64,000 nt of DNA. It comes from Liolophura sinensis (lineage: Eukaryota > Mollusca > Polyplacophora > Chitonida > Chitonidae). The position numbers were made by a program, and so were the translations under genes. How positions within the stretch are numbered: position 1 is the stretch's first letter; each line of letters starts with the position of its first letter. Of the stretch, positions 22,016 to 62,800 are shown piece after piece. Location: the NCBI RefSeq assembly GCF_032854445.1, contig NC_088304.1, forward strand, positions 12,537,704 through 12,601,703, in the 5' to 3' direction. Under the pieces are notes generated by a model. It was not told the origin of the DNA and did no database searches. It saw only the letters and a program-made list of their open reading frames with translations.

Positions 22016-22282
22016 TTTATTTATTTATTTGATTGGTGTTTTACGCTGTACTCAAGAATATTTCACTTATACGACGACGGCCAGCATTATGGTGGGTGGA
22101 AACCGGGCACAGCCAGGGGGGAAACCCGCAACCATCCGCAGATTGCTGGCATACCTTCCCACTTACGGCCGGAGAGGAAGCCAGCATGAGCTGGACTTGA
22201 ACTCACAGCGACCGCATTGGTGAGAGGCTCCTGGGTCATTACGCTGCGCTAGCGCGCTAAACAACTGAGCCATGGAGGCCCC
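22016..22282 (-). mobile_element. SINE type A, full length (reference copy)
   Basis: On the minus strand: a tRNA-like head (ggggcctccatggctcagtt, then gttcaagtccagctcatgct as box B), a conserved body, and a 3' end cgtaaaacaccaatcaaata with AATA repeats. About 267 bp. It resembles the widespread tRNA-derived SINEs of molluscs; a RUDI-type identity is possible but unchecked. Confidence 0.88.
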
Positions 22283-22876: not shown

Positions 22877-23825
22877 GTGCAGGCTAGACTGCACAGCTGA
22901 CCAGCCAAAATGTTTAAAATCGAGTCATACATCGCCCCACTTTTGATGGGCTACATTGACAAGTATGTCAAGCTGCGGACAGAGGATTTTCAACTGTCAC
23001 TCTGGGGAGGAGATGTGGTACTTAACAATCTGGACCTTCGCCTCGACGTCATTGAAGAAGCCATCCAACTGCCAATCATATTCAAGAGTGGTCACATTCA
23101 CGAGCTTCGCATGCACGTTCCGTGGACAAAGCTGCGCTCAGAACCTGTGGTCATCACGATTAACACAATCGAGTGCATCCTGAAAGTTCGCGACACAGGC
23201 TATGACAATGACAGCAGCAAATCTAGCAGCTCTGATGTCCATCGTTCTGCCTCCCAACAGAAACTGAAAGTGAAACAAAAACCAGATGCTCCAGATCTTC
23301 CTCCCGGTTACCTGCAGAGCCTTGTCAACAAAGTTGTCAACAATGTCAATATTGTTGTCAACAACTTGATCCTGAAATTTGTTGAGGACGACATTGTGTT
23401 GTCCATCAATGTCAAGTCTGCAGAGTGTTACAGCGTAGACAAAGACTGGGCCAGGGCTTTTGTGGAGTTGTCTCCCTTGGATTTAGTGCTGAGGAAAGTT
23501 GTCAGCTTCTGTGATTTGACAGTATGCCTGGACAAAAGCGATGCAAGTGGAAAAATTGAAATGTACCAGGACCCTGTGTTGTACCGTAGTTCCATCACAT
23601 GCAGATTACACACAATCTACGAATCCCTGCACTCCAAGTTCCCATCAGTCACCAAACTGAACATGTTTTGTGACAAGGTGGAGCTGACGTTGACCGACAC
23701 CCAGCTGCCCATGTGTATCCGTCTGGTGGAGCTTTGTCTGGCTATTTACTACGGGACACTGGGACGGTCAGACTCGGAGAGAGATCAGACTGTCGAGCCG
23801 GTCAGTCAGGAAGTCCAGAGGACAG
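22877..23825 (+). CDS. VPS13B: VPS13B exon 1 (first coding)
   Basis: Acceptor gtattttacag, 33 nt of leader, ATG at 22910, residues 1-305 (chorein domain and the start of the lipid groove). Ends g|gtgag, phase 1. The acceptor implies an upstream noncoding exon. Confidence 0.95.
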
Positions 23826-38800: not shown

Positions 38801-41800
38801 AATGGCTAGCGATTATGAAAACTTTTTTCATTTTTTTTTTTTTTGTTGATGGGATACTTATACATCACATTCAAATTATCGAGTTTTGATAATGTTTCGA
38901 AATAAATTTTTCTCAGCAGCACTAAAGCTCAAACATTTAAACATAAAATATAAAACATACAAAGATGAAATCTAAAATATTTCAAGTCTTGCTTAGTTTG
39001 ACTTTATGTATTGATGCGTCAGATGAAAATTTTATGTGATTTATAGCTTTTGAGAAATCGCATTGTGTGAATGTGGGTTGTAAAATATAAGACCTGTATT
39101 CACTGGACGAGTGAAAACAACTAATCGTACCGTGTGGCTTTTTGTAGGGAATACATGTAGCAATGGAAGTTGGAAGTTGTGGGGGGGGGGGGGGGAGGGG
39201 GAGGTGAGCGCATCAAGAAGGCTTCGTAGGAGTGTGACAAAATCAGAAGATCTTTAGCATTGTTTGATATTTGCAGATTTTAGCAGAGAAAAACTGTTGT
39301 TGTAGGTTCAGACAACAGCCTTACTGTTGACCCAAATTACCAGCGTGGGGAAGGAACTCAGTGGCTTTTGGGGGACGTCTCTGTCCACAGAGGGCAAAAA
39401 ACCTTCTCCAGAGGGGGTGGAGGTCAGGACTGACCCACCTCCTTCCACCCCACATCACGCACCACCAGTGGAGCCTTCCACAAGTGGTGCTGAGGGTGTT
39501 ACCACAGAAACGTCGGAAGACTTGTCAAGGGAGACAACTCCTAACCGGGAGCTGGAGATCGAGGAGGTGCAGTCGTCAGGTGTGAGGCTGTCTTTCTGGT
39601 TGCAGTGGACCCTGCCGAAGTTTGAGCTTTTGTTGTATGGAGAAGAAAAGAGGAATAAACTGGGTAGGGAAAGGCGTTAAAATAAACTTGTGCAATATTA
39701 CCATTTTGTTTGGTACTTGTCGAATACATTTATACATGTTTAAATATTGGGGTTTATCTATGTATTCAACGAGTTTTTACCTGAATGGAAAATCTAGTAA
39801 AATGTTTTGTGCTCACAACAAGTTTGAGTGAATCCTAGTTGAAGACTTTTTGTTGAGGTTATGCTGTTTAGAGCTTTGGCAAGGACACACAGAGAGATTG
39901 ATCATGTTAATGAAGTCTTGATAAATGTATAAATGTTGCTAAGATTTCACGTTCAAGCAATTACCCAAAACAAAACATTGTTTGGATTCTCCCGACTTCA
40001 GATGAAGTCACAATTCCATGTATGTGACACGTCAATTTCTTCTTTTTTTTTGTTTGTAATGGTAATTGACATCTTTTTTTTTTTACCACTTAAGGATCTT
40101 GATTTTTCAATTGTCTGCCTGATAAAGCCGCTTTATTCCCAGGAAAGCATTTATTGGGAATTTAGGCTATTGAAAATGCAACTATGCCTATAATAAAACT
40201 GAACACCTTCTTTCACCTTTACATGGGGCAAGCATTGAAATCTTTGTAATTTGTTACTTATCTTTTCACTTTTCCCAGAGAGGTGTGTGGCTGTTCAGCT
40301 AGAAGAGCTGATCATGTCCATTGACCTGCAGGAAGTATATGGCAAGGTCAAGGCCAAGGTCGGAATGGCAGGAATCCGTCACTATGTCAAAACGTGAGCT
40401 GACAAAAATATCTGCTGTTTCTGGACTTCTTGTAAAGAGAATTTATAATATTTCTAAATCACATGAATTGATCTGAGAGGTGTGGCAGGAGGGGAACTTT
40501 CTATTTTTGTTACTCTACCAGGGCAATTTTTCAGTATTTGACTGCAAAAGAATAGGTTGTGTATTAGAGGCTGTCAAAAAAGAAAAAAATACAATGTAAC
40601 AAAAAAGGTGTATTAGCTAGCTTTGTCAAAATTAGTTTTATTATTGTTAACATAATTGTACAGAACTCCTAAGTTCATACATTAGCCCGTCTTTGCATCG
40701 ATGTTTTGAAATATCACAAATATTAGTTCATACACATATTATGTTTATGTACTTTTGTAAGAATAACAAAGCTGAAAAATATGGCATGGACTTATACTAA
40801 AGATGGAACTAAAATGTTCAGTATTATCATCATTACAAACAAATTACATAAAATTTCATCAATAACAAAGATGCATTTTTTAGCCTGAATTTTAATAGTT
40901 CTGTTGATATGTACTGAGATAAAAAAATGTGTCAACAACAAAATAATATTTAATGACATTTATTTGCTTCTTAAAACCCACCTTTTTTGGGTGCGATGTT
41001 TTATGTCATTTACCATACATGGAATAAATCTTGAATAATACATTAATGAAATTCATTGATCTATCAGTAAGCTGTTGTTTACAGACTTGGGGAGAACTCG
41101 TGGGTTCTTGGAGGAAATGAAGGTCTCCTTGTGTCTGGGCCGAGCAGCTTGCCTCGCAACATCCAGGTTGTATCAAATAAACTATGGACCAATGACAGCC
41201 TTCCGTCACCGATGGGGTCGTTGTACACTGTCAGTGATGTGGTTGGTCGGGACAAAAATCATGGGCTCTTGTCATTCACCTTCACCAGAGCCCTGTGCAA
41301 GAATGTGAAGCGACGGATGCGGAAACTGAATGTGGAGCTTGCAGGGCTCCACGAGGACACAAACTCACACATGCAAGATTTACTGGCAAATAACTACAGG
41401 AAGTACATCTCGGAAGTGTGCTTCACTTTAGAGCCGTGTGATACTTTCCTCTTCAAACCAGTTGTTGGACTTATCGTCAACGTCTTCAGCTACAGTTTGC
41501 CGCGAGACGGTCTCAGCGGGGTGAAGTTCTCCAGGCCCTCGGTGAAGCCACAGCTCCAGCTTGGCCCAAACCCATTATCAAGCCTCAGGGGAAGCAACTC
41601 TGCCAGCTCTCTAAAGAACTCTCAAAGCTCATCCAAAATGCCTTTGTCCTCTGCGTCCATTCCACTGATGTATGTGAACATTTCCGGCATGAGGGTTTTC
41701 GTGCCTGTCGTAGACGTGACTCATAACCCCAATGACTCAATAGATGATTCAATACGGAAGAAAACATCAACTCAGAACCATGACATGTTTCTGCTTCAGT

Positions 41801-44800
41801 TTTCGTCCTTGTCACTTAACCCACAAGCGGAGAATCCTTTGTCCAGGTGTGTGATGGAGAAAGAGCTGTATCGACGGGCACTTCATGCTGGGGTTACTCA
41901 GCATCCAGGCTCACAGCTGGAAGACAGGCAATATCAGCTAGACATTAAGGCTCTCACCTTCTGCTCAGGTAAGTCACACGTTCGTCTTTTCATGTAGATA
42001 CAAGATGTAAGAAGTTCGGATCTAGCCAATCATATGTACAGTATTTTGCAAATCAAATGTGAAATCAAAAAAAAAAAATAATAATGCATGACATGACTCT
42101 TCACAAAGATTCCGCGAATTTGGGGAATGCCAAATTATGAAGGCAACAACATAAATTGACTCTTCACAAAGATTCCGCTGATGTGGGCAGTGCCAAATTA
42201 TGAAGGTTACATCATAAATTATTTTGTGCTGACTTTTAAGTGAATCAAAATACAGATGTGTAACTTGTGTATTACCAGGTGTGTGGGAAAACTTTACACG
42301 AAGGGTCTCCCGTCCTGAGGGTAGTGCTGTGGCCCACAACCCTTCGGTACAGATCCCTGCCGTGGAGTGGAATAACTTGATGATACCTGTGCAGTAAGTG
42401 TGGAATAAAAAGATCAGAAAATGATAATTTTCTTTTATATCTTGACATTTTGGAGTCCACAATCACTTCATGGAAGGAGGGAACAAATTTCCAGGAAAAG
42501 AACAGGGATTACATGGCTAGGAAATACAAAAGCATTATTAAATGAGGAATGACGAGGCTTTATTAGGTCAGGAAAAGAAAAGTCATTATTAAGCCAGGAG
42601 AACACAAGGCTTTATTAGGTCAGGAAAAGAAAGTCATTATTAGGTCGGGAGAACAAAAGGCATTATTAGGCCAGGAAAAGAAAAGTCATTATTAGGTCAG
42701 GAGAACAAAAGCCATTGTTAGTTCAAATAAAGAGCACATTGGTATCAGAAGATCAGATTTATACAAGTACTTTAGCACATACTGTAAGGTTGGTCAGCAG
42801 CCTGCGGATGGTTGTGGGTTTCCTCTGGGCTCTGCCCGGTTTCCTCCCACCATAGGGCTGGTGGCCGTCGTATAAGTGAAATATTCTTGAAGATGGTATA
42901 AAACACTAATCACATAAATAAATATATTTTTTAGGAAGGAAAAGGACATCAGAGTTATTCCCCTTGCTTCCCGGTTTGACTTCAAAGTGGTGCTTGCTCC
43001 AGCCATTGTCTACACACCTCCATCAGGTGTACAGAAGAAAACTGTCAACCAGGAGGTGCAGTATCATATGGTCATTTTGATGTAGACTTGATTTTACATG
43101 TTGTGGTTCATCGTTAATACTATTAAAGTGTGCAGAAACGCTTTTAGTATTTTCCAACCTGCAAATTTTCGCAGGCTTCCCTCAGGTACTGTCTGGTTTC
43201 ATCCCACAATAATGCTGGCTGCCGTGGTATAAGTGAAATATTCTTAAGTACGACGTAAAACACCAATCAAATAAATAAATATTTAAATTTTAGCATTTTC
43301 TCAAGGGTCAAAAGTAGAAAGAACTAATCATGTCCTAGTTTTTAAGGTACATGTACTTGTCTATCACACGATAAGCGAGTCTAATGTCATTCTCAGCTAG
43401 GGCTGTCAAGATTCCCCTGTCCTCGGCGCCCCTTCGATGCGGCAATAAGTGATCGACAATGCTTTTTCATGTAATCTTACACAAAGTTTTGCTGAAGACC
43501 ACTTGTCTTTCACGCATGACATGTCATGCGTGGAAGACAAGTTCACTAGTTCACTAGTATAGCCTGCCCAGGGTTGGTGGTTTAATTCGCTTTTGGCCAT
43601 CCATAATTCACAAATGATAAATTGTTGAATACGGAATCATGCAAGAACCAATCAAAATCAAGGGTCATAGTTCATATTTTATTTATAAGCTCATGGGAAC
43701 GTAATATTTGCCAAAAAACTTGTGGATTTTATGACATGTTAACATGTCTGACCTTTTTGATTGGAGTTGTATTTGTGATGGTTGCCAGGGCTAATAAGTC
43801 AAACTTTGCTTTAGTCAACTTTTGTATTTTAAACAGGCTTTTAAACGTGATAACGCAACGATGTGAACGTGATAAAGCAAGTTTGTATGCCGACTATCCT
43901 CAGTCATGAATATTGGCTGTCCTCAGCTTTTGGCTGATTAAAATTTGAAAAAGAAATGAAAGTTACTTTTAGACAGCCTGTGCAGGTTGCAGTGCTACAT
44001 TTACCTTCATATTTGAAAATGTGAGTTAAGAGTGAAACAAGGATGATACCTAAACACGTAAATTTGGTTTTTAATAATTTGTTAATAAATAATTGTTTTG
44101 TAACCTGGGTTTCCTTTCAGCCTATAGTGGTGTGTGGCCATGCTGTGGAAATCAATATCATAAGTGACTTAGACTTCTACCTAAGTACCAGCCAAATCAA
44201 CCTCCTCCACAAAATGGTGGCAAACATTACAGCACCTAATGAAAATGCTGAAGACAGTGGTGTGGCCATGCTGACTGCTAATGCATCGCAATCCAGGGGA
44301 GAGCACCATTTGATCGATAGTGGCGTTGAAAGTGACGCATCAACAGCCAACACACATGCTCAAATAGAATCCCGCGCCAAGGCCCTTCCCATTGCCATTG
44401 GTCACCAGCCAGAAGTGGTTGCCTTTACTAAAGGTCAGGGCCCAAGGAGATAACTCCGCTTGATGTTTTGCTGACAGCCGGTCGAATCACATGCATGTTG
44501 TACAGCCACAAGACACAAACGGACGGAGTGAAATTGTCTGTGGGTAAGAAAAAGTCAAAACTGGCTCATTCCAAATCGAAGAGGGCTGATCGAGACAAGA
44601 AAACTGGAGTGTACAGCGGCAAGAAAAGCTCATACATCCAGGCGTGGTCGAGCTGTGGTTATTTAGCAGACGAATCCAGCGACGAGTTTGAAGGGAACTA
44701 TGACCCAGCTACTCACCTGCGCTTTATGAATATTCATGCAACGTCGGACAGCCACAGCTCACGTGATGAGGAGACAGGGATTGTCATTGTACCATTTCTA

Positions 44801-47800
44801 TACAGTTATTTCTCACAGCCGCATGCAGTTATCTCCCTTCAACCGGACACCCAGAAGGTGGAGCTGTCCTGTTATGATGTCATGCTGAAAGGAGCAGCAG
44901 TGGATCACATCATTAAAGGTACTGGTATACCCCGAAACCAAAGTGTCCTATAATTCATCAGTGGGTCACATCGTCTGGACACAGGCAGTGATTCTTGTAC
45001 GTTTAAAACTTTTCCCAGCAGATGGAAGTCGAGAGTCATTTTCTATAAACCACGGCATTCATAACTTGCATAAGTACATTTATATGGTCTGTCAGCAACT
45101 TGCAGATGGTCAAGGGTTTCCCCTGGGCTCTGCCCGGTTTCCTCTCACCATAATGCTGACATATGAGTGAAATACATTTGAGTACAGTGTTAAACAAGTC
45201 AAATAAAAAACTAAATAAAATATAAATACATTTACATTTTTTATTTTGTTTTATAGTCCATATAACCCTTGGTACTTTTTTTTTCTTGTTGATTCACCAA
45301 AACAAAAAACACAGCACAAAAGCACAGAAGAAAAAAATGTGTTTTAACATATAAATGTCAAATATGCGACCTTTCAAGTTTTCTTTTGAATATCAGTGCT
45401 TTGATTTATTTATATATTTATTTGATTGATGTTATACGCCATACTCAAGAATGTTTCACTTATACGATGGGGGCCAGCATTATGGTAGGAGGAAACCGGG
45501 CAGAGCCCGGGGGAAACCCACAACCATCGGCAGGTTGCTGTCGGACCTTCCCACTCACGGAGGCCCCTATCAGTGCTTTGCATTATTCTGATGACATTTT
45601 ATCTGATCAGTACTCCATGTTTTAAATGTAATAAAACATTTGCCTGTTTTGTTTTCTGACAGTTGATGACCACAAATTTTTACCTGACTGTTCTGATTAT
45701 GCCACCCACTGGCTGGAGACTAGGTCTGGATCACCTAACATGAAGACAGGTGTACCTGCCAGCCTCATCACTGTGAGGGTCACTGACCTGCTACAGGGAC
45801 CAGGTAGGTGACATTGTTACTTGTACATCAGTGGGGCTAGCCCTAACTTGAGGACAGGTGTACCTGCCAGCCTCATCACTGTGAGGGTCACTGACCTGCT
45901 ACAGGGACCAGGTAGGTAACATTGTTACTTGTACATCAGTGGGGCTAGCCCTAACTTGAGGACAGGTGTAGCTGCCAGCCTCATCACTGTGAGGGTCACT
46001 GACCTGCTACAGGGTCCAGGTAGGTGACATTGTTACTTGTACATCAGTGGGGGCTAACCCTAACCTGCGGACAGGTGTACCTGCCAGCCTCATCACTGTG
46101 ATGATCACTGACCTGCTACAGGGACCAGGTAGGTGACATTGTTGCTTGTACATCAGTGGGGCTAGCCCTAACCTGAGGGACAGGTGTACCTGACAGCCTC
46201 ATCACTGTGAGGGTCACTGACCTGCTACAGGGACCAGGTAGGTGACATTGTTGCTTGTACATCAGCGGGGCTAGCCCTAACCTGCGGACAGGTGTACCTG
46301 CCAGCCTCATCACTGTGAGGGTCACTGACCTGCTACAGGGACCAGGTAGGTGACATTGTTGCTTGTACATCAGTGGGGCTAGCCCTAACCTGAGGACAGG
46401 TGTACCTGACAGCCTCATCACTGTGAGGGTCACTGACCTGCTACAGGGACCAGGTAGGTGACATTGTTGCTTGTACATCAGCGGGGCTAGCCCTAACCTG
46501 CGGACAGGTGTACCTGCCAGCCTCATCACTGTGAGGGTCACTGACCTGCTACAGGGACCAGGTAGGTAACATTGTTACTTGTACATCAGTGGGGCTAGCC
46601 CTAACCTGAGAACAGCTATACCTGCAAGTCTCATCACTGTGAGGGTCACTGACCTGCTACAGGGTCCAGGTAGGTGACATTGTTACTTGTACATCAGTGG
46701 GGCTAGCCCTAACCTAAGGACAGGTGTAGCTGCCAGCCTCATCACTGTGAGGGTCACTGACCTGCTACAGGGACCAGGTAGGTGACATTGTTGCTTGTAC
46801 ATCATTGGGGCTAACCCTAACCTGCAGACAGGTGTAGCTGCCAGCCTCATCACTGTGAGGGTCACTGACCTGCTACAGGGACCAGGTAGGTAACATTGTT
46901 ACTTGTACATTAGTGGGGCTAGCCCTAACCTGAGGACAGGTGTAGCTGCCAGCCTCATCACTGTGAGGGTCACTGACCTGCTACAGGGTCCAGGTAGGTG
47001 ACATTGTTACTTGTACATCAGTGGGGCTAGCCCTAACCTGAGGACAGGTGTAGCTGCCAGCCTCATCACTGTGAGGGTCACTGACCTGCTACAGGGACCA
47101 GGTAGGTAACATTGGTACTTGTACATCGGTGGGGCTAGCCCTAACCTGAGAACAGCTATACCTGCCAGCCTCATCACTGTGAGGGTCACTGACCTGCTAC
47201 AGGGTCCAGGTAGGTGACATTGTTACTTGTACATCAGAGGGACTAGCCCTAACCTGAGAACAGCTATACCTGCAAGCCACATCACTGTGAGGGTCACTGA
47301 CCTGCTACAGGGTCCAGGTAGGTGACATTGTTACTTGTACATCAGTGGGGCTAGCCCTAACCTAAGGACAGGTGTAGCTGCCAGCTTCATCACTGTGAGG
47401 GTCACTGACCTGCTACAGGGACCAGGTAGGTGACATTGTTGCTTGTACATCATTGGGGCTAACCCTAACCTGCAGACAGGTGTAGCTGCCAGCCTCATCA
47501 CTGTGAGGGTCACTGACCTGCTACAGGGACCAGGTAGGTAACATTGTTTCTTGTACATTAGTGGGGCTAGCCCTAACCTGAGGACAGGTGTAGCTGCCAG
47601 CCTCATCACTGTGAGGGTCACTGACCTGCTACAGGGTCCAGGTAGGTGACATTGTTACTTGTACATCAGTGGGGCTAGCCCTAACCTGAGGACAGGTGTA
47701 GCTGCCAGCCTCATCACTGTGAGGGTCACTGACCTGCTACAGGGTCCAGGTAGGTGACATTGTTACTTGTACATCAGTGGGGCTAGCCCTAACCTGAGGA

Positions 47801-50800
47801 CAGGTGTAGCTGCCAGCCTCATCACTGTGAGGGTCACTGACCTGCTACAGGGACCAGGTAGGTAACATTGGTACTTGTACATCGGTGGGGCTAGCCCTAA
47901 CCTGAGAACAGCTATACCTGCAAGCCTCATCACTGTGAGGGTCACTGACCTGCTACAGGGTCCAGGTAGGTGACATTGTTACTTGTACATCAGTGGGGCT
48001 AGCCCTAACCTGAGGACAGGTGTAGCTGCCAGCCTCATCACTGTGAGGGTCACTGACCTGCTACAGGGACCAGGTAGGTAACATTGGTACTTGTACATCG
48101 GTGGGGCTAGCCCTAACCTGAGAACAGCTATACCTGCCAGCCTCATCACTGTGAGGGTCACTGACCTGCTACAGGGTCCAGGTAGGTGACATTGTTACTT
48201 GTACATCAGAGGGACTAGCCCTAACCTGAGAACAGCTATACCTGCAAGCCTCATCACTGTGAGGGTCACTGACCTGCTACAGGGTCCAGGTAGGTGACAT
48301 TGTTACTTGTACATCAGTGGGGCTAGCCCTAACCTAAGGACAGGTGTAGCTGCCAGCTTCATCACTGTGAGGGTCACTGACCTGCTACAGGGACCAGGTA
48401 GGTGACATTGTTGCTTGTACATCATTGGGGCTAACCCTAACCTGCAGACAGGTGTAGCTGCCAGCCTCATCACTGTGAGGGTCACTGACCTGCTACAGGG
48501 ACCAGGTAGGTAACATTGTTTCTTGTACATTAGTGGGGCTAGCCCTAACCTGAGGACAGGTGTAGCTGCCAGCCTCATCACTGTGAGGGTCACTGACCTG
48601 CTACAGGGTCCAGGTAGGTGACATTGTTACTTGTACATCAGTGGGGCTAGCCCTAACCTGAGGACAGGTGTAGCTGCCAGCCTCATCACTGTGAGGGTCA
48701 CTGACCTGCTACAGGGTCCAGGTAGGTGACATTGTTACTTGTACATCAGTGGGGCTAGCCCTAACCTGAGGACAGGTGTAGCTGCCAGCCTCATCACTGT
48801 GAGGGTCACTGACCTGCTACAGGGACCAGGTAGGTAACATTGGTACTTGTACATCGGTGGGGCTAGCCCTAACCTGAGAACAGCTATACCTGCAAGCCTC
48901 ATCACTGTGAGGGTCACTGACCTGCTACAGGGTCCAGGTAGCTGACATTGTTACTTGTACATCAGTGGGGCTAGCCCTAACCTAAGGACAGGTGTAGCTG
49001 CCAGCCTCATCACTGTGAGGGTCACTGACCTGCTACAGGGTCCAGGTAGGTGACATTGTTACTTGTACATCAGAGGGACTAGCCCTAACCTGAGGGACAG
49101 GTGTAGCTGCCAGCCTCATCACTGTAAGGGTCACTGACCTGCTACAGGGACCAGGTAGGTGACATTGTTACTTGTTCATCGGTGGGGCTAGCCCTAACCT
49201 GAGGACAGGTGTACCTGCCAGCCTCATCACTGTAATGATCACTGACCTGCTACAGGGTCCAGGTAGGTGACATTGTTACTTGTACATCAGAGGGGCTAGC
49301 CCTAACCTGAGGACAGGTGTACCTGCCAGCCTCATCACTGTGAGGGTCACTGACCTGCTACAGGGACCAGGTAGGTGACATTGTTACTTGTTCATCGGTG
49401 GGGGCTAGCCCTAACCTGAAGACAGGATTACCCACCAGCCTCAGCACTGTAAGAGTTACTAGGTTGCTACAGAAATGGAATTTATAAACATTCTTATCGC
49501 ACACTTTCGGGAAAGGCAAGAAATGTGTATTTGGACCTTTCAACAGTTTTTTTTTTTTATATTTTATACAAGTAACTACATTTAGCTCTAGCTATTTTGG
49601 CTGCGTTTTATCCAACTCTGTACCTCAGACTGTTTTGATTCAGGGAATGTTTTATGAACCGGGTTGATGCCTTGCAAGTGAAATATTCTGGAAATGAAAT
49701 GAAATTTTCTGAATAAATATTAAACTACTGTACATCGGTTTAAAGCACTTTTTTCAGTGAAATTTGTACGTACAATTGCATTGCATGAAATTTATGAAAA
49801 TAACACCAAAAATGATTTGTTTGTGTCACTAAAGATGAAAGTTTCATAAAACTGTCCAGATTATTTCTCTACACCCCATACTTCTCTCAGAATGGTTCAA
49901 AATATTGGTCACTGAGGAGGTTGAAAACGTTGAGGAATTAGGGTAGACATTAGGTTCATCCATAAACTTTAAAACCAATCTAAATATACATATAGGACTT
50001 TGTCCTCGTAAATATGGCTTTTTATGGGCTTGTTGTTCACAGGCCTTGCTGTTGTAATACTTGCACTTTGCAAGTCTCACATTTCTGAGAAGCTGACTTT
50101 AGGGATAATAAAAGGAATTTTTTTATTGCAGCTCAAATTTCTGTGGAATTGGAAAGACCAGTGAAGACTGAGTGCAAGTCTGTCCAAACTTCTGCAGGTA
50201 AATCAATTCATGGCAGACAGCGTTGCCACCTGGAGGATTGATTCTGAACTAGGAAAAGACAACTCCAAGATTGACATGCCAAGGAAAGTGTCAGGTATGT
50301 CATTTAGATGTGATTATTAGATTATTCTAAATTTTAAATTTTACATACCACATTACATTGGGTAATAATTGTAAATTTTTATATTAAAAATACCTAATGA
50401 AGTACTGTCCCAAAGAAAGCTTCCACAATTTTGTGAAATACATGTAATAGGAATAGCCTCTTGACAACAATTTTTATGAAAATTGAAAATGATGCCGTTC
50501 GCCTTTAAATAAATGTTTCATTCATTCATTCTTTCCTTTGTTGATCATTCATATTATTATTATTATTATTACTGTTTGCATTATTACTGCTTGCATTATT
50601 CAGGGAATGCTGAGACATCAGAGTCCACTCTCATGACTTTCCTCAGCCACAGAGTGAAAAGCGTAGAGTTACAGACTGAACAGGTTGTGCTATACGCAGA
50701 GACCCTTACAGACCAACAGACACCCTTTGTTCTCGTCGCACTGGGCTCAATCAGCGCTGATGCTGAACTTCATCTTAATGACAAAGGTACAGTATACACC

Positions 50801-53800
50801 AAAGAAAAATTGACCTGTTGAGACCATTGAATTTAGACAGTTTGTTCATTTTGAAAGGGAGCCTCTCCGACCGAGGAGGTTAGCACGCCAGCATGGTGCA
50901 GTGACCCATAAGCCTCTTACCACTGCAGCCACTGAGTTTAAATCCATCTCATGCTGACTTCCTCTCTGGGCGTATGTGTGAAGGTCTTCCACCAACCTGC
51001 GGATGGTCGAGGGTTTCCCCCAGGCTCTGCATAGTTTCCCCCCGCCATAGCGTTAGCCAGTGTCATACAAGTGAAATATTTTGGGTATTTCGTAAACACC
51101 ACTCAAATAAGTAAATCATTTTAGTATCTTTTTTAATATATATTTCAGATCAAATTGGAGAAATCGCTGCCAATCTGTTCGCAAAAGACATTCTTGTGAA
51201 GACTGGGTTTGAAAGCAAGGCCAGACCTCTGATTGGTCCATTTACAGTGAATTCTGATTGTGTAGTCCAATGGGGAGACCACAGTGGCCCTGATTGGCTG
51301 CCAAAAGTTACCATGGTTACAGATATGGGACTGGTAACCATAGAGATAGGTCAGGAGCATATTCTCTGTATGGAGATGCTGCAAGAACACATCGTAGAAT
51401 TTCTGCAGGTAAATGTCGTTGTAAAGCACATTTGATGGGCACAAATTTGGCTAAATTTAAAGATATTGCTACTGGTTCAACAAAAAACCCCTCTAAAGCA
51501 ATGTTTACGTTTTTATGAAAAATGAAAATTTTGCTAAAAAAATGACAGTTCTGAAAAAAGGCATATGTTTTAACTCATAATAACTTCTGTATTTCTTGCT
51601 CAAATTTCAATAAAAGTGTCATCAATGAACTTGCCTTTTAGGAAAAGCTTAGTGCCCCTCATTTGGACTCAGATTTTTAGCTTTTTGCATTAATTTGACA
51701 TGTGTAAGTGACATGCATTTAGACTTTTTTTTATGTTGGATTTTTTCAACATAAAATGGAATTTTTAGGGGCCAACTAATGGCCAAGTTTTGTACCAAAG
51801 TTTGTAAAAAATCATGTAAAATTTGGCTGATTCTAGTCATTACCTTTCCCAAATTCAGATTTATGATTTGGTTCACATGTTGTTTGATTCTGTGATCACG
51901 TTGTCTTTGTATATTTCTACTTAGCCTGAAGGTCAAGGAACTGACCAATCCTCTGCCAGCTTGCCGTCACATGACCGTCCTCAGGTGCCTGTCAAAGTGA
52001 AGTTATCAGAGGATTTTATCATCAGTCAGACTCAAGATGACCTGAAGACAGGGACATTCCAGTACATCGTAGACGAAGGTTTGCTTTTTCTGTCAGAGTT
52101 CTTTTTGTACGTGTATTATTACGTGTATTGTATAAAAACTAGGTGTTATTGATACTCTGTTACACTTTGGATTTTCCTCCTGAGTACAACTCTGATGTCC
52201 AAGTAAATGGTACATGCTTCGGAACACTACTCAGGTCACCACTTTCGATGTCCTTTTATTGAATTATTTGTGTTTTCACGAGTGCTCATCTCACGTGTCA
52301 GTCAACTACATAAACGCAGACAACAATAAAATCATGCAAATAAATAAACAAGACAGTATGGTGCAAACAGATAAATTTATGTAAAAACTAAATAGTTTGA
52401 GAAACCTTTTTACTACAGTAACAGAAAATTCTTCCCAATGTTTGCAATTTGATACGGGTAGAGTCAGTAAGATGTATGGGTTAAAGCACTTAATTCAACA
52501 ATTAGGGTAAGTGTTCATTATCAATTTCCTCCAGATTTTCACATTTTAGGGCAATAAATCGAAGGCGCTATGGCAGCGTCAAAACAAGGTGTTTGGTAAT
52601 CATGCTTTACAGTACTCAGTGAAGAATGTGTCCACCGTTAGCGTTATGAAGAGTGTCAACTGCATTACTGACCACACGCCGACACAGCTCCTGGATTGTT
52701 GCCCTAAAATGTGAAAGAAGTTAAAGGTTTCTCAAACTGTTTTCACATAAATTTAATTGTTTGCGCCATATTGTCTTGTTTATTATTTATTTACTAGTAT
52801 AAATAATTTGTTTGTTCCAAGGATTTCTGATATCAGTAGTTGGCATTCTGTAATATTAAATTTGGATTCTACATTGTGGTACATGTAGTCAAAAATGAAT
52901 AAGTACATTATTGTGCATGTTCTGCCTATCCGTAGGTGAGGGTCTTCACCCTAACCCTGGGGAAATTGTGTTTGGGGTGGAGTCTGATGCCGGTGACAGC
53001 ACAATGACATGGAGTTATCACCAACCAAGAGTTATCTCCCATTTCTCTGTCAGTCCTGTGCCATTTAACATCTCAGAAGACGAAACGTCAGGTCAAAGTC
53101 CTTCCTCGCCTAAGGTTAGATTTAAGGACATGTTGAAAGCCAGAAAAAAAAAAGTAGCCATTTCTTAAATTAGTTGACTTAGAATGAAAACAGAATTATG
53201 TATATTTACATGTAGTGGCATATAGGAATTTTTATTCAGGCAGCTGGCTTATGGCATCAATTACTCTTCAAACACAGGTGATTAATTTTAAAAAGGAGTT
53301 TTCTGGATTTTTGTTCTTTAATTATCTATTGGGGAGAGGTAGGTAAATCCATTTTAATAGCAAGTGAGAAACAGTACTCAGCTGTGACTGATGACCAAGA
53401 TAGGAATATTGACACCTGGATGATGTACAAGGGCAAGATAATCCTTGTCCCCTGAGACAGCTCTAGTCAAATTCCTGATAGAGATTGACTGGTTAAATTT
53501 TTTTTACAAAATTGACAAACAGCTGATAGGGGTCACATCCTGTCATAGGCCCCTGAAACAGGATTTTTCACTACTTTTGCCCAGTGTGCATCCGCCAGCA
53601 TTTCCTAAAAAACTCACAGATTTATGCCTAGAATAAAACTTTGAAGCCTCCGCTACAAAATGGTATCTCTTAACAAGTAGAAAAAACGAAAAAAGGAGCC
53701 CAGAGGAGCAAAAGAAAATACATTTATATCTAAAGAAGGAAGGGATTAATTTCATAGTTCCTGACCCAGAAGTATTAATTGTGGACTGTAGGCATCTTGG

Positions 53801-56800
53801 TCATGAACCAAATCTAAGTATGGCTGCCCTCTGACATGGACCAAACAGTGACAGATATTCCACTATATGTTTTTGCATTTATCACATTAAGCTACCAGCG
53901 TGCCTTTCATTAATATTCAAGTACATTTAATGATTTCTGCCCCGTATTATTACAGATCCCATGCACGCTTCAATACTGGGATGTGATGGGGAGAGAGTTT
54001 GTGGACTATCAAGAGTTTTTCCTGTCAGAGGATAAAACATGTCTGCTGTCTCTGCCAGAGGTGAAGCCTCATGTCAATAATCTGGTGGTGGCCCTGATGT
54101 GGAGGGTGGTTATGTCGGGTCATATGGATCAGGAGGAAGAAGAGGCTGAGTAAGTATGGTTATCTCCCCTTGTAAATCTTCTATTTGTCTGGATCCCATC
54201 TTTCCCATCACACAAAATTTTGACAAATTAGACAACATCAAAAAGTTGCTAAAAAAAATCCAACTAAAAGAGGTAATAGGTGGTGTCATCTGTCTAAAGC
54301 ACAGCTCTCATCACACCTGATGGACTCAAGGCATGCTCAAATCCAGCTCTTTGGAAGTTCTCTCAGTTTCCTGAATAAGGGTTGTAGTTAACTGTGAACA
54401 TTAAGGTTTCCTCCTTATGAGACAACCACTGTATGCATTTGAGTGAATAAATCAGGTACATGTACCTGGAGAAGTGTTATTTATTTTTTTTTTTTTTGGT
54501 TTTTTTTTAACCCCAGTTTTCTCCATGCATAAAACTGGGCATCGTTGTATAAGTGAAAAATTTGAGTATTGCATTCTATTTGCAATCCACTAAATAAGCA
54601 GATATTTTTCTCAGGTTCACTTCAGCAGTTAGGTTATGGGTGGGAAAACAAACAGTACTAGTAATTTAGTGACGAGCATTGGCCTGATGTCCTGGAACTC
54701 ACATCAGCTCACAATTCATTCAGTTAATCCAGACTCACGTGTATATTACTCAGGAGAATCCTATGGTTCATTTCTGTCCCCATTGTTACCGTGGTTACAG
54801 AGAGAGGACATCGACCAGTTCTTCAGTGAGAAGCAGCTGTATGGTACTGCCCATGTCCCTGGCGGCGTGTATCCGGGTGGACTCGTGCTTTGTCCCAAGT
54901 CTCATCCCCACCCTACAGGTCTCTCTGTCTGTCTCCCTCATTGAGGTCCATCTGAGCAACCATCTGCAGCAAATGGGTGATGGTAAGTAGGAAAGTGCAG
55001 TAGGTTATCATTTCATTTTCTCATTGGTCACACCACTGTAGCAGCATCAGAGACGCAGAAAGCTCACACAGTCTAAATTTATATATGAGAGTTTAGAATA
55101 GTGTTATTCATTTTCAATAAGGGGTCTCTGTAGCCTAGTGTTATTCATTTTCAATAAGGGGTCTCTGTAGCCTAGTGTTATTCATTTTCAATAAGGGGTC
55201 TCTGTAGCCTAGTGTTATTCATTTTCAATAAGGGGTCTCTGTAGCCTAGTGTTATTCATGTTTTTTTTTTTTTTTGACGACGGCCAGCATTATGGTGGGT
55301 GGAAACCGGGCACGACCGGGGGAAACCCACGACCATCCGCAGGTTGCTGACAAACCTTCCCACGTACGGCCGGAGAGAAAGCCAGCATGAGCTGGACTTG
55401 AACTCACAGCGACCGCATTGGTGAGAGACTCCTGGGTCATTGTGCTGCGCTAGCGCGCTAACCAACTGAGCCACGGAGGCCCCCTATTCAGTTTCAATAA
55501 GGGGTCTCAGTAGCCTAGTGGTTAGTGAGCTGGCACAACACAATGGCCTAAAAGTGCCTCACCAGTGTGGTCGCTGTGAGCCAGCCACGGGATCTAGGCA
55601 TAAAAATGGGTTTTACCCCATTCCTGCCAATGTGCCCCCCCCTTCCCCCCTCCCCCCCCACACAATAATGCTTGCTGCTGCCGTATTTATGAAGCGATAG
55701 TGATAAATTCTTGAGCAGCGTGTAAGTCTCTAATAAAGTAAATAAATACTAAATACTAATCAGTCTCAGTATGTTTGTCTGGCTAGGTCATGACTAAAAG
55801 TTGTCTGTGTGTTGTTTCAGTTATCACTTGTTTAGGTGTTGTTGCTAAACTGTTTATTGAATTAAAGCCATTGAATATAAACTAGTCGTGACTCATTGTT
55901 ATACATGTAGAATATCCCACTACATCTTTTTTTTTAATAGTGTCATTGTAAGGAATGTGTTTTCTGTTGTACTCACATTTTGTAGAGTATTTGAGTGTTT
56001 TTTATATTTGGGGAAATACATATTTTGTATCTTTCAGTCATACCCACCAAACTTCAGCCATACTTTGCTGATTCTTTGGCCCCTCTTGACCAAGAGTTTG
56101 GTGTGATCATCATTGACAACCCTGGTGTTATTATATCCAGGGTTCAGGGCCAGCAAGCCCGAACTACCATTGGAGTAAGTATTTCACAATACACATGTTA
56201 CAGGGCCTGCATTCCAGTTTCCTCCACCCATAAACCTTTCTGGCAAGACAAATTGTGTATACATGTATGTATGTGGAAAAGTCTTGAGCACAGCTTTAAA
56301 TACCATTGAAATAAATATTAAATAAATAAATAAATCACGTGAGAACTACAAAAGGTGAAATCAGATACAGAGATAACCATCGACAAGGTTTAATGGTACA
56401 TGTATTTTTTAAAGTGAATTGATTTGAATATCTTTTGATATTCTCTAAAATCTTGTTACAAAAAAAAGAAAAAATGGTGCCTGGATAAAGTTTCTGTCAT
56501 AATCTTTAAATTTTGAGGTCTGCATTATTGCGTTTTAGGAGCACATGATTGATTCATTGATGAATTGTTGGCGAAGAATGTTTCAAGAATGTTTCACTCA
56601 TACAACAGCAGTCAGTGTGGCAGAGGAAACTGTCGTACCTGACACGTTTATTTATTTATTTATTTGATTGGTGTTTTACGCCATACTTAAGAATATTTCA
56701 CTAATATTTCATGGTGACGGCCAACATTATGGTGGGAGGAAATCGGACAGAGCCCGGAAGAAACCCACAACCATCCGCAGGCTGCTTACAGCCAGAGAAG

Positions 56801-59800
56801 AAGCCAGCTTGTACCTGGAATAAACCACTGGCCTGTGGCAAGTAACTGAAATATTGTAGATGACCATAAATTGAAGTAATGTAAGTAATCACTTGCAGAT
56901 TTCAGCAGCCGCGCAGCTGGATGTAGTGGAATATAAGTTTCTGACCAGACAGACTGTCATAGAATCCACAAGTTTCCACGGCAACCTGACCATCTTTCCT
57001 GAAGATCAGGTATATTTAGATTTACAGGTTTTAACACGAGGTTCAGTTGTACGTCAAAATAGTTCCTGTGTATTTCTGTGTCTGTTGAAATCAGTATTCA
57101 CATCACATGTATGTTTGTAAGATTTTGTCCTGTGCAGAACAAGAAACAGGCCCAGGTGTTCCGTTCAATGGAAGTCTTGTTTTCGCCTCAGTTGATGAGT
57201 CCCTTGAAGTTGCCAGGTTTGTCAGGTACACTAAGAACTGTGATGGCCTTGACTATGAGCCCACAGATTCCTTCACCCATAAACCTGAGATGAAATTTCA
57301 AGAAGTAACATTAGGAATTAAGAAAAACAATAATTATTATTAGATTGTAATTACCACTGTTGAAAAAACTTATCAGAGTTGACGTGACTTTATGCTATTT
57401 GTTTTTCAGAGTCTTACTGTGGACTGTGCTGTTGATATTGAGCCAATGTTAGTGAGGCTGGGTAAAGGTGCTGTACACACACTGGACTGTGCTGCTCAGG
57501 TGTTCTCACAGGTGAGTAGATTTGACTGTGGACTGTCATACTGATGTTAGTGAGGTTGGGTAAAGGTGCTGTACACACACTGGACTGTACTGCTCAGGTG
57601 TTCTCACAGGTGAATAGATTTGACTGTGGTCTATGCTGTTGATGTTGAGCCGATGTTAGGGAGACTGAGTAAAGGTGCTGTACACACACTGGACTGTGCT
57701 GCTCAGGTGTTCTCACAGGTGAGTAGATTTGACTGTGGACTGTCATACTGATGCTAGCGAGGCTGTTTAAAGATGATGTACACACACTGGACTGTGCTGC
57801 TCAGGTGTTCTCACAGGTGAGTAGATTTGACTATGGACTGTCATACTGATGTTAGTGAGGCTGGGTAAATGTGCTGTACACACGCTGGACTGAGCTGCTC
57901 AGGTGTTCTCACAGGTGAGTAGATTTGACTGCGGACTGTCATACTGATGTTAGTGAGGCTGGGTAAAGATGCTGTACACACACTGGACTGAGCTACTCAG
58001 GTGTTCTCACAGGTGAGTAGATTTGACTGTGGACTGTCATACTGATGTTAGTGAGGCTGGGTAAAGATGCTGTACACACACTGGACTGTGCTGCCCAGGT
58101 GTTCTGACAGGTGAGTAGATTTGAATGTGGACTGTCATACTGATATTAGTGAGGCTAGCAAAAGGTGCTGTACACACACTGGACTGTGCTGCTCAGGTGT
58201 TCTCACAGGTGAGTAGATTTGACTGTGGACTGTCATACTGATGTTAGTGAGGCTGGGTAAAGATGATGTACACACACTGGACTGTGCTGCTCAGGTGTTC
58301 TCACAGGTGAGTAGATTTGACTGTGGACTGTCATACTGATATTAATGAGGCTAGGAAAAGGTGCTGTACACACACTGGACTGTGCTGCTCAGGTGTTCTC
58401 ACAGGTGAGTAGATTTGACTGTGGACTGTCATACTGATATTAATGAGGCTGGGTAAAGGTGCTGTACACACACTGGACTGTGCTGCTCAGGTGTTCTCAC
58501 AGGTGAGTAGATTTGAATGTGGACTGGATGCTGATGTTAATGAGGCTGGGTAAAGATGCTGTACACACACTGGACTGTGCTGCTCAGGTGTTCTCACAGG
58601 TGAGTAGATTTGACTGTGGACTGGATGCTGATGTTAGTGAGGCTGGGTAAAGGTGCTGTACACACACTGGACTGTGCTGCTCAGGTGTTCTCACAGGCGA
58701 GTAGATTTGACTGTGGACTGTCATACTGATATTAATGAGGCTGGGTAAAGGTGCTGTACACACACTGGACTGTGCTGCTCAGGTGTTCTCACAGGTGAGT
58801 AGATTTGAATGTGGACTGGATGCTGATGTTAATGAGGCTGGGTAAAGATGCTGTACACACACTGGACTGTGCTGCTCAGGTGTTCTCACAGGTGAGTAGA
58901 TTTGACTGTGGACTGGATGCTGATGTTAGTGAGGCTGGGTAAAGGTGCTGTACACACACTGGACTGTGCTGCTCAGGTGTTCTCACAGGTGAGTAGATTT
59001 GAATGTGGACTGGATGCTGATGTTAATGAGGCTGGGTAAAGATGCTGTACACACAGTGGTCAGACTATTGTAAGTGTGTTTCCTTTCTTTAATGTATTTT
59101 ATGTATAAAAGGACTTTTTTCATCTGTGAACCCATGTATTGCTAAAAAAAAACACCCATGAAACATTCAGAAAATTAATATGCAAGGTATATATATATTG
59201 TCAAACATACATTTACAGAATATCCTTTGAAATGTCCTATTGAAAAATGTTTTTCCTACATATGTATTATTATTTTTACACTGGTTAATATAACACAGTG
59301 AGATAAGTAATGTTATTTGAATAATTATACACTCATGTTCTTGTTATGTGATGTTCTAGATGTTGACTGACAACATAGGAGAGCCTTCACCGAGAATCAT
59401 CTTCAACCATTACATCATCTGCAACAACACTCAGCAGAGCATTCGCTTTGGACAGGTGAGGAGTCTTTATCTGATCACAGATTTAATAGCTACAAATACT
59501 TTGTATGGTGAAATTGTCATATTTTAACTTCCATATGAAACATAGTTTGATTCGCATGATCAGTGAGTACCTTTTTCTAGGATGCATTGTGCCACGTTTC
59601 CATAAGTGCGTTTGCATTACGCCATGTGGTTACTCGACGCATTTGTTACAGTGTTTCAATGTTTTCCCTGGCCCATGTGTTGACAACTTCAATTCTTCTT
59701 CTCAACTGATCCACTTGCTGTACTAATACCATGTCCGATTTATTAAATATGGGACATTTCCCATTTAATCTATGTTAATGCTTTTCTTAAAGAATCGAGC

Positions 59801-62800
59801 GGAGTCTGTGGATGAGCGGCCAAGTATTTCCGTTCTAGGAAAACTTTACAGACAAGTAATTGCAAATGCAACGACATGTCTGTGAAAACACAGAATTACA
59901 TGGCAAATCTGGTGTGTTGATTAATCTCTATAGAACTGGGTGCTAGTTGCACATCTAAGTTTATAATAGTACACATACACAAATGATTGTTACATTCTCT
60001 GCCAGGGAAGATTTTCATTTACAAGATTTGAGAAAATCAACCATTGTGTTCAAGAAAGTTCTACTGGAACCAAGCTGTTTGAAAATGTTTTTTTTTTTTT
60101 GTTTTGAGTTGAATAACAGTTGAATAAAGTATATCATGTACATATATGAGGTCTCCATGGTGGTTAGCAGGGGGTTAGCAGGTGGCTAGCAGATTAGCGG
60201 GTGGTTAGCAGGTGGTTAGTAGGTGGTTAGCAGGTTAGTAGGTGGTTAGCAGGTTAGCAGGTGGTTAACAGGCTAGCAGGTGGTTAGCAGGTGGTTAGTA
60301 GGTGGTTAGCAGGTGGTTAACAGGTGGTTAACAGGTTAGCAGGTGGTTAGCATGTAACAGGTGGTTTGCAGGTTAGCAGATGGTTAGCAGGTTAGCTTAA
60401 CAAAGCCTAAAAATAGAAATGACTGAAGCCTTTGTCTGTGAATCTGATTTTCCCTGCCATTCCACCATTAAAGTCTGAGCATTGTGTCATTTGCCTAAGA
60501 ATAAACAATTTTTTTTATAACTTTTATAACTGAATTGGTCTGTCCATGGCAATGTGTGTGCTGTGTTTCAGGTGGGCAGTGATGAGAATGTGTGTGTGCA
60601 GAGCAGAGAGATGAACCTGTACAGCTGGAGGACACAGACACTGCCACAGGTAACTGACATGTCACCGTTTTATGAAATATCATCTCAAGTGACAGTTATT
60701 AATAAATAATAGTTACTTCAGGTTGAGTTTATTTTTTTTTTTATGTGTGATGTTTTCAAGATGCACATGAACATTGCACATTTTGCGAAAGTGGGTGTGC
60801 CCTGATCGAGAGAAGGGAGAAGTTAAGTGGGGAGGAGTGTAATAGGAGATCTGGAAAAGTCTGAAATTTGAAAAAGACTTTTCCAGGCCTTGGAAAAACA
60901 TGGAGAATAAGGTGTTTTTTGTAGTTGGGCCTGGAAAAGCCTTGGAATTGAGACTGCGGGACCAGTCTGAGCAACTGTGTGTCGTATGTTGATATTCTCT
61001 TTAGCAAATTTGTTGTACAACTTTTGTAAATTTTTACAGTGAGTTTTTACAAACGTCTGGAAATTTTAAAAATTTAAGGCATGTGAATTCTGCTTTCATG
61101 TCAGTTGATTGAGTGTTGGATTTCTGATGTAGAGTTCTAAGTTAAAATCCAAAAACATCTGTCAGCTATTACACATTGAGATTGTAAAACTGATGTTTGT
61201 TTCCAGAGACTCCACCTGTGTTTAGACGGCTCCAAGTGGCAGTGGTGTGAACCTTTCAGTGTGACCAATCAGCGCACATTTGTGAGGCGTGTGAACACGG
61301 CAGAACAGACATATACGGTGGTCATCAAGGTCAAACACCTGTCCAACGTACACACACAGGTAATTATCACATGATCTTGAGTTTGTGAGGCGTTTGAACA
61401 GGGCAGAGCAGATGTATACTGTTGTCATCCGTGTGAAACACCTGTCCAGCCTTCACACACAGGTAAATATCACACGATCTTGAGTTTGTGAGTTGAGTGA
61501 ACACAGCAGCACAGACGTATACTGTTGTCATCCAAGTGAAACACCTGTCCAACATTCACACACAGGTAAATATCACACTATCTTGAGTTTGTGAGTTGAG
61601 TGAACACAGCAGAACAGACGTATACTGTTGTCATCCGAGTGAAACACCTGTCCAACATTCACACACAGGTAAATATCACACGATCTTGAGTTTGTGAGTT
61701 GAGTGAACACAACAGAACAGACGTATACTGTTGTCACCTGAGTGAAACACCTGTCCAACATTCACACACGGGTAAATATCACACGATCTTGAGTTTGTGA
61801 GTTGAGTGAACACAGCAGAACAGAGGTGTACTGTTGTCATCCAAGTGAAACACCTGTCCAACATTCACACATGGGTAAATATCACACGATCTTGAGTTTG
61901 TGAGTTGAGTGAACACAGCAGAGCAGATGTATACTGTTGTCATGTAAGTGAAACACCTGTCCAACACTCACACACAGGTAAATATCACACGATCTTGAGT
62001 TTGCGAATTGAGTGAACACAGCAGAACAGAGGTGTACGGTGGTCATCAAGATAAAACACATGTCCAGCGTACACACACAGGTAAATAACACACGATCTTG
62101 AGTTTGTGAATTGAGTGAACACAGCAGAACAGATGTATATTGTGGTCATCATGGTCAAACACCTGTCCAACGTTCACACACAGGTTGAGTAGTCTACCAG
62201 AATATCATTTGAGTTTTGTCAAGTTTGTTGGATTCCAGTGAACATTGCAGATTGCTTCAAAGCAATGATATTTTAGAATTTTTTGCTAAAATAAGTTATG
62301 TGAGTAGAGGTCATGTGACAATACATTGATTTATTTATTTGTTTATTTGGTTGGTGTATTACGCCGTACTCAAGAATATTTCACTTACACAACTGCCGCC
62401 AGCATTATGGTGGGAGAAAACCAGGCAGAGCTTGGAAACCCATGATGACCGCAGGTTGGCAGACCTTCTCACATGTGACAATATAAGGACTAGATCTATA
62501 CTTTATGAGGGTAATGCACAGTGAAGCAATCATTGGCATATGATGTTTTCATCTTTAGAAAAGGCATAGTCTTTTTTTTACCTCATGAATACCGTAGTCT
62601 TTTTAATTGCAATAAAACTATGATCAGATATTTTTTTAGGTCAATAAAAGACATCTGTCTGTTTAATTACAGATATGTGTTGCATCCTTTTTGGCATGGT
62701 AGTGTTTAGTTCTCATCAAAGAGCCTTTGTTATGCACTTGTACTTTTACAGGTCATCATCAGTGGTCAGTTGATGGTGTCCAGTCGACTCTCCCACACCC

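What the first reader, a model, noticed from the sequence alone, without database searches (positions are those of the whole stretch)
45734..62187. Three introns of one gene open with tandem arrays built from the preceding exon's 3' end plus its 5' splice site
After VPS13B exons 22, 32 and 35 the sequence repeats a unit made of 60-81 nt of the exon, the donor, and 22-38 nt of intron (108 bp x ~34, 98 bp x ~16, 103 bp x ~9). The units are unrelated in sequence but share the same architecture and similar length (about 100 bp). The arrays are independent, so this suggests a locus- or genome-wide process that duplicates across exon/donor boundaries, or selection tolerating or favouring arrays of donors. 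I know of no described named system of this kind.
Basis: partly seen in the sequence, partly recalled or inferred. Interest (0 to 1): 0.88.

Follow-up and report, generated by a model that had tools for sequence, protein, structure and literature searches.

The report
Tandem arrays founded on splice donors
In a chiton genome, short stretches covering the end of an exon and its 5' splice site have repeatedly been copied into tandem arrays inside the following intron; the likeliest reason is that splicing ignores extra donor sites downstream of the first one, so such copies are tolerated more readily than copies of the 3' splice site.

Summary
In detail: three introns of a VPS13-family gene open with arrays whose first unit is the exon end plus donor. 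It is not special to this gene. The assembly matches the published Liolophura chiton genome. In 26 dynein and myosin loci, 9 more arrays are donor-founded and 1 acceptor-founded. Genome-wide, the donor word CAGGTRAGT recurs in triplets 996 and 1,605 times at two spacings, the acceptor word TTTGCAGRT 67 and 71 times, with similar numbers of single copies; part of this is base composition. Excess over plain intron DNA is about twofold and not firm (outside the window 1.97, 95% 0.92-3.06). Acceptor depletion is significant in some tests, not in others. Copies have on average weaker donors than the first, and using the second donor would add a stop in 10 of 12 arrays. Best reading: ordinary minisatellite birth filtered by splicing, where the first donor wins. 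A donor-targeted mutation process is not excluded. Closest precedent (recalled): the human IFI6 splice-donor minisatellite.

The parts
22910..63009 (+). VPS13-family gene (5' part; probably continues beyond the window), host of the three arrays
   Evidence: VPS13_N at exon 1 E 7.9e-61; VPS13_VAB over exons 59360-61359 E 1.5e-7; exon model
45663..45803 (+). exon whose 3' end and donor founded array 1
   Evidence: predicted exon, acceptor 3.5, donor 4.4
45734..49450 (+). array 1, 108 bp x34.4; unit = 70 nt exon + 38 nt intron; 33 of 33 later copies found by the scan keep GT
   Evidence: 34 matches, all in this array, in the genome search
57410..57511 (+). exon that founded array 2
   Evidence: duplicated from 57416 on
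57446..59059 (+). array 2, 98 bp x16.4; founding segment = nearly the whole exon + ~13 nt intron; 14 of 15 later copies keep GT
   Evidence: 17 matches, all in this array
61207..61359 (+). exon that founded array 3
   Evidence: most of it lies in the VPS13_VAB match
61279..62185 (+). array 3, 103 bp x8.8; unit = 81 nt exon + 22 nt intron; 7 of 7 later copies found by the scan keep GT; the last, partial copy ends at the donor
30123..31206 (+). intron-only array for comparison, 24 bp x45, starts 49 nt after the donor at 30073
55099..55259 (+). intron-only array for comparison, 37 bp x4.4

Best explanation
These are minisatellites born by ordinary tandem duplication, seen through the filter of splicing. 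Duplications arise all along genes in this repeat-rich genome. One that spans a 5' splice site leaves the exon joined to its original donor, with spare donors further downstream; the spliceosome uses the first (exon-proximal, first transcribed) donor, so the protein is unchanged and the array can grow by unequal exchange or slippage. One that spans a 3' splice site places an extra acceptor upstream of the real one, where it would often be used first and add intron and duplicated exon to the mRNA, so it tends to be removed by selection; duplications inside exons are removed too. Shown: the arrays, their recurrence, the donor/acceptor asymmetry, weaker donors in copies than in the first unit. 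Inferred: actual use of the first donor in RNA, removal of acceptor duplications by selection, and the mutational mechanism.
For: Donor-founded 12, acceptor-founded 1, intron-only 34 of 47 arrays in gene bodies; donor vs acceptor 12:1, p=0.003; outside the window 9:1, p=0.021. Per site: donors 11/387, acceptors 1/389, p=0.003; outside the window 8/346 vs 1/349, p=0.020. Acceptors below intron background: 3/389 vs 231/6,236, p=0.0009; ratio 0.23, 95% 0-0.76, resampling loci outside the window. Genome-wide triplets: donor 996 (reversed control 249) and 1,605 (232), acceptor 67 (71) and 71 (40), with 19,957 and 17,682 single copies. First donor on average stronger than its copies, 3.9 vs 2.5, p=0.002 over 12 arrays, about equal in two; second donor would give a premature stop in 10 of 12 and a frameshift in the other two. 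No donor-proximal gradient among 34 intron-only arrays (KS p=0.72).
Against: A pure filter predicts donors at the intron rate; placement tests show an excess (12 observed, 2.82 expected) and the per-position ratio is about 2. Acceptor depletion, which the filter needs, is not significant in two tests: 1 observed, 2.35 expected outside the window, P=0.30, and 1/389 vs 235/18,235, p=0.10. Much of the donor/acceptor word contrast is composition: per single copy the reversed donor word is in triplets 3.4 (gaps 15-45) and 5.7 times (gaps 70-100) as often as the reversed acceptor word. In the first 100 listed single hits, clustered loci do not differ between donor (7/54) and acceptor words (4/43, p=0.75). 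In dynein loci alone the donor/acceptor difference is not significant (3/239 vs 1/238, p=0.62). The weaker donors of copies are partly expected because the gene finder picks strong donors and copies without GT were scored -8. No RNA evidence.
Confidence: 0.55

Rival explanations
1. A mutational process targets functional 5' splice sites (for example transcription-linked damage, R-loops or paused polymerase at the exon-intron boundary) and starts tandem duplication there.
For: Placement excess 9 of 39 outside the window vs 2.33 expected, P=2.6e-4, not removed by GC weighting; donor word 1.5 to 2.6 times its reversed control per single copy; excess is confined to arrays spanning the donor, intron-only arrays are spread evenly.
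Against: Per-position test: p=0.37 in the first form, ratio 1.97 with interval 0.92-3.06 outside the window. Donor-like words inside introns do not appear to seed arrays (0 of 34 intron-only units have a strong sense donor, about 0.5 expected, so weak evidence). No gradient near donors.
Confidence: 0.22
2. Selection favours arrays of donors, for example as extra U1-binding sites that secure exon definition or protect long introns from premature polyadenylation.
For: Most detected copies keep GT (130 of 144); mean diversity of donor columns is lower than that of the rest of the unit in 6 of 8 arrays, with p=0.005 in one and 0.050 in another; founding donors slightly stronger than average (3.9 vs 2.9, p=0.053).
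Against: Copies are on average weaker than the first donor (p=0.002); many copies lost GT in L026 (10 of 18 keep it) and L009 (11 of 15); donor columns vary more than the rest in L028b and L029. The GT count and the column test are biased toward conservation because copies were found by similarity around the donor.
Confidence: 0.1
3. Assembly artefact or chance cluster in one gene.
For: Reads average 8.3 kb at 14x, so exact copy numbers of the 3.7 kb array could be off.
Against: Copies differ from each other; the shape recurs at 9 donors outside the window, in 7 loci on 6 contigs (C1, C3, C6, C9, C11, C12); the window arrays are shorter than the mean read.
Confidence: 0.04
4. Intron gain or remodelling by tandem genomic duplication of AGGT-containing exon sequence, with copies acting as acceptors too.
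For: Units contain AG|GT, and most array 1 copies look like 54-nt in-frame mini-exons to a lax gene finder.
Against: The best acceptor inside the arrays scores 0.9, 0.7 and -0.5 against 3.5, 4.3 and 2.1 for the acceptors of the same exons.
Confidence: 0.04

Closest known systems
Human IFI6 (6-16/G1P3) splice-donor minisatellite (Turri, Cuin and Porter 1995, NAR 23:1854; paper not held; title seen as a citation, content recalled)
   Same: Tandem array at an exon-intron boundary in which each unit carries a 5' splice-site consensus
   Different: As recalled, 12-bp units, with more than one copy used as donor; here units are about 31-121 bp including up to ~95 nt of exon, and several unrelated genes are affected
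Human internal tandem repeats at exon-intron boundaries in segmental duplications (PMC2812944, abstract and passages seen)
   Same: Tandem repeats at exon-intron boundaries that can alter splicing
   Different: Recently duplicated human paralogues; no donor/acceptor asymmetry stated in the passages seen
Intron gain by tandem genomic duplication of AGGT segments (reviewed in PMC3443670, passages seen); introns from tandem arrays (Zhuo et al. 2007, title seen, paper not held)
   Same: Tandem duplication of exon sequence with a splice-site motif
   Different: There it makes a new intron; here it lengthens the start of an existing one and the acceptors inside copies are weak
Ordinary intronic minisatellites
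   Same: Unit length, copy number, divergence between copies
   Different: Unit includes coding exon and a predicted functional splice site

Membership tests
minisatellite / VNTR | head-to-tail units of roughly 10-100 bp in many copies | tested here: met
   periods 98-108 in the window, ~31-121 elsewhere; 103, 108 and 121 lie slightly above the usual limit
minisatellite / VNTR | copy number varies between individuals | not testable with these tools
   one haploid assembly only
IFI6-type splice-donor minisatellite | each unit carries a 5' splice-site consensus continuous with the exon's real donor | tested here: met
   33/33, 14/15 and 7/7 detected copies after the first keep GT in the three window arrays
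IFI6-type splice-donor minisatellite | several copies used as donors in mRNA (recalled feature) | not testable with these tools
   no RNA data; second donor would give a premature stop in 10 of 12 arrays
intron gain by tandem genomic duplication | duplicated AGGT copies serve as new donor and acceptor of a new intron | tested here: inconclusive
   in-array acceptors score below the true ones; no RNA
tandem exon duplication | unit includes acceptor, whole exon and donor | tested here: not met
   units of arrays 1 and 3 start inside the exon; array 2 founding segment starts at 57416, exon at 57410
dispersed satellite or mobile element | unit present at other loci | tested here: not met
   units 1 and 2 match only their own arrays (34 and 17 matches), in a search that scores only the best candidates; unit 3 was not searched

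The most novel reading that the evidence does not exclude
Functional 5' splice sites are birthplaces of minisatellites: a splicing- or transcription-linked mutational process duplicates DNA across the exon-donor boundary at a few percent of donors, and the asymmetric tolerance of donor versus acceptor copies records, in genome sequence, that the first-transcribed splice site wins.
Probability: 0.22. Interest if true: 0.8.

Novelty: new variant of a known kind. Interest (0 to 1): 0.5.

Why it matters
If the asymmetry holds genome-wide it is a natural experiment on splice-site choice: introns in which strong, near-identical donors follow the real one, apparently without harm, while the mirror arrangement at acceptors is scarce. 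In my sample 11 of 387 donors carry such arrays; if that rate held across the genome the cases would be numerous, which I did not count. It would also explain how some intron starts lengthen and how gene finders are misled (mine called 28 false exons in array 1). It can be tested with annotation and RNA-seq already published for this species.

Tried and rejected
Composition as the cause of donor excess: intron-only units have mean GC 0.374 against 0.354 for intron background, donor-spanning segments 0.421; weighting raises the expectation only from 2.33 to 2.71 outside the window.

Donor-like words as seeds anywhere in introns: sense and antisense strands of 34 intron-only units do not differ (17 vs 17). 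Clustering of intron-only arrays near exon ends: not found.

Function of copies from diversity along the unit (8 of the 12 arrays tested): donor columns have lower mean diversity in 6, significantly in L028a (p=0.005) and borderline in W1 (p=0.050), higher in L028b and L029; exon part significantly less variable than intron part in 3 of 8. Not decisive, because copies were found by similarity around the donor.

Rows dropped before counting: L027 4920 and L027 9474 (similarity at the donor, but 0 copies in the direct scan), L029 1935 (doubtful exon, 9 of 134 control hits), the acceptor-side hit at L003 859 (doubtful exon, acceptor -1.7, outside the gene body), two weak acceptor-side hits of donor arrays (L025 2456, score 16; L029 5260, score 15), and arrays outside gene bodies or with period under 15 or span under 60. 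L028 1165 was merged into L028 659. L014 5139 is degenerate and L014 5701 has only a few exon bases; without these two, outside-window P is 0.006 and donor:acceptor 7:1 p=0.07.

The first per-position test gave no donor excess over intron (15/387 vs 208/6,746, p=0.37); it counted single chance matches, so I repeated it requiring two or more copies; both are reported.

Full report
What is there. Each starts inside a predicted exon of a VPS13-family gene and its first unit is the exon's 3' end, the donor and the first intron bases. The exon model came from a small gene finder trained on the window's clear exons; there is no RNA evidence. Family identity rests on VPS13_N at exon 1 (E 7.9e-61) and VPS13_VAB near the 3' end of the window (E 1.5e-7). 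The VAB match covers residues 112-196 of six joined exons, that is the exons at 59360 and 60572 and most of 61207-61359; it confirms that the first unit of array 3 is coding but does not cross the junctions after arrays 2 and 3. Two units were searched in the whole genome and match only their own arrays (34 matches; 17 matches); the search scores only the best candidates, and the third unit was not searched.

Correction to the anatomy. In array 2 the copy at 57623-57718 aligns to the exon from 57416 onward. The founding segment was nearly the whole exon plus about 13 nt of intron, and later copies lost part of it. The units of the three arrays do not include the exon's acceptor.

Source. Contig count 632, the contig of 96,433,062 bases and one of 37,343,639 bases equal the contig number, longest scaffold and N50 in PMC11068029 (results section read); total length differs slightly (609,464,459 here, 609,495,693 there). 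That is a chiton assembled from HiFi reads of mean 8,347 bp at 14x. The authors' correction names the species Liolophura sinensis instead of L. japonica. The window arrays (up to 3.7 kb) are shorter than the mean read.

Is it general? I took 17 dynein heavy chain loci of 10 kb and 9 myosin loci of 9.9 kb, picked by Pfam matches before looking at repeats in them, plus 30 kb downstream of the window. Not every listed match was used: the dynein match at C1:95.59 Mb and more than ten of the myosin places were left out. Together with the window this gives 395 predicted donors. Donor-founded arrays appeared in TRF and exon tables: L007 7121-7940 (83 bp x10), L009 4394-5005 (about 31 bp), L014 5139 and 5701, L025 2541 (31 bp x6), L026 2149 (32 bp), L028 659 (66 bp) and 3169 (31 bp x18), L029 5818 (121 bp x9); the direct scan found copies of the donor region in all of them. 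For two, the exon peptide aligns to solved homologues up to the donor or within one residue of it (dynein axonemal heavy chain 2, E 2.2e-14; myosin VIIa, E 5.1e-11); the others were judged by eye. One mirror case exists: L007 5745-6157 repeats the acceptor and the exon's 5' end, and its last copy is the real exon.

How unusual? After merging, 47 arrays lie in gene bodies: 12 donor-founded, 1 acceptor-founded, 34 intron-only. If a founding unit of each array's length fell uniformly in introns or across one splice site, 2.82 donor-founded arrays are expected (P=8e-6). The window prompted the question, so the fair number is outside it: 9 of 39, 2.33 expected, P=2.6e-4, or 8e-4 with GC weighting. 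Dropping the two weakest (both in L014) gives P=0.006. Acceptor-founded outside the window: 1, 2.35 expected, P=0.30 for so few.

A test by position is less kind. Asking whether a 30-mer at a donor has any similar copy downstream: 15/387 donors against 208/6,746 intron points, p=0.37; acceptors 3/389 against 231/6,236 upstream, p=0.0009. Requiring two or more copies and, for introns, no copy on the other side: donors 11/387, introns 238/19,633; p=0.009, 0.03, 0.029 and 0.054 over four settings; acceptors 1/389 against 235/18,235, p=0.10, and 0.096 to 0.14 in the other settings. Intron points of one array are not independent, so I resampled loci: outside the window the donor/intron ratio is 1.97 (95% 0.92-3.06) and acceptor/intron 0.23 (0-0.76). 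So donors are about at the intron rate or up to a few times it, acceptors are probably below it, and the firmest statement is that donors exceed acceptors. By family that contrast is 5/89 vs 0/92 in myosins (p=0.027), 3/239 vs 1/238 in dyneins (p=0.62) and 3/59 vs 0/59 in the VPS13 gene (p=0.24).

Genome-wide word test. CAGGTRAGT occurs 19,957 times, its reversed spelling 7,605 times. Three in a row with gaps of 15-45 bases: 996 against 249; gaps of 70-100: 1,605 against 232. The acceptor word TTTGCAGRT occurs 17,682 times, reversed 7,457; triplets 67 against 71 and 71 against 40. Per single copy the donor word is 1.5 and 2.6 times its control, the acceptor word 0.4 and 0.75 times; the two controls differ 3.4 and 5.7 fold, so composition explains part of the donor/acceptor gap. 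Matches overlap within arrays and are not independent events. Counting loci in the first 18.84 Mb of contig C1: 16 donor, 4 reversed-donor, 3 acceptor loci (from listings). In the first 100 listed single hits, loci with three or more copies no more than 600 bp apart are 7/54 (donor), 3/82 (reversed; p=0.051) and 4/43 (acceptor; p=0.75). The words are not restricted to real splice sites.

Mechanism. Intron-only arrays are spread evenly along introns (n=34, KS p=0.72) and their units carry no excess of donor motifs on the sense strand (0 of 34 strong, about 0.5 expected). So I see no sign that nearness to an exon, or a donor-like word alone, draws arrays. Within arrays the first donor outscores the average copy (3.9 vs 2.5, p=0.002, about equal in two of 12; copies without GT scored -8), and use of the second donor would bring a premature stop in 10 of 12 arrays and a frameshift in the other two, by reading the exon frame into the unit. 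This fits a splicing filter: the first donor is used and maintained, later ones drift. That the first-transcribed donor is preferred, and that an upstream extra acceptor would be used, is general knowledge of splicing and not tested here. The residual donor excess, if real, needs a further cause, which I leave open.

Literature. Searches on the subject that ran. No genome-wide account of donor-founded arrays appeared in the listings. Nearest: the IFI6 splice-donor minisatellite (cited title; paper not held, content recalled), tandem repeats at exon-intron boundaries of human duplicated genes (PMC2812944, passages), intron gain by tandem duplication (PMC3443670, passages).

Verdict. Real, recurrent, a new variant of a known kind. 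The likeliest cause is tolerance by splicing rather than a new system; a donor-targeted mutation process remains possible.

Noticed in passing
window 44121-44918: The VPS13-family exon here is split between two overlapping plus-strand frames (44025-44453 and 44432-44953), so the gene finder inserts a 44-nt intron; possibly a frame break in the assembly or allele.
   Followed up: no
window 12920-14600: A 42-bp array (x40) built on near-palindromic ACATGTACATGT is open on both strands (570 and 581 codons); it lies among minus-strand exons that I take for a NIT2-like carbon-nitrogen hydrolase (one exon, 18029-18319, matches CN_hydrolase E 2.3e-5; the name NIT2 is recalled).
   Followed up: partly
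window 30123-31206: A 24-bp array (x45) starting 49 nt after a donor is open on both strands for over 350 codons.
   Followed up: no
L007 5745-6157: The only clear acceptor-founded array in the sample: intron 3' end plus 36 nt of exon repeated upstream, the last copy being the real exon. A good test case for whether upstream acceptors are skipped.
   Followed up: partly
G000 C1:1291132-1292274 and C1:1413360-1414502: Arrays with a perfect donor word in many successive units (about 85 and 82 bp periods); genes not identified.
   Followed up: no
L010 3334-3428 and L011 1894-4426: Two intron-only arrays carry a strong donor motif on the antisense strand.
   Followed up: no
window 21998-22189, 26707-26916, 32099-32509: A dispersed element whose frames read like [15 protein letters not shown] recurs in the window; it looks like a SINE (recalled resemblance, not searched).
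   Followed up: no
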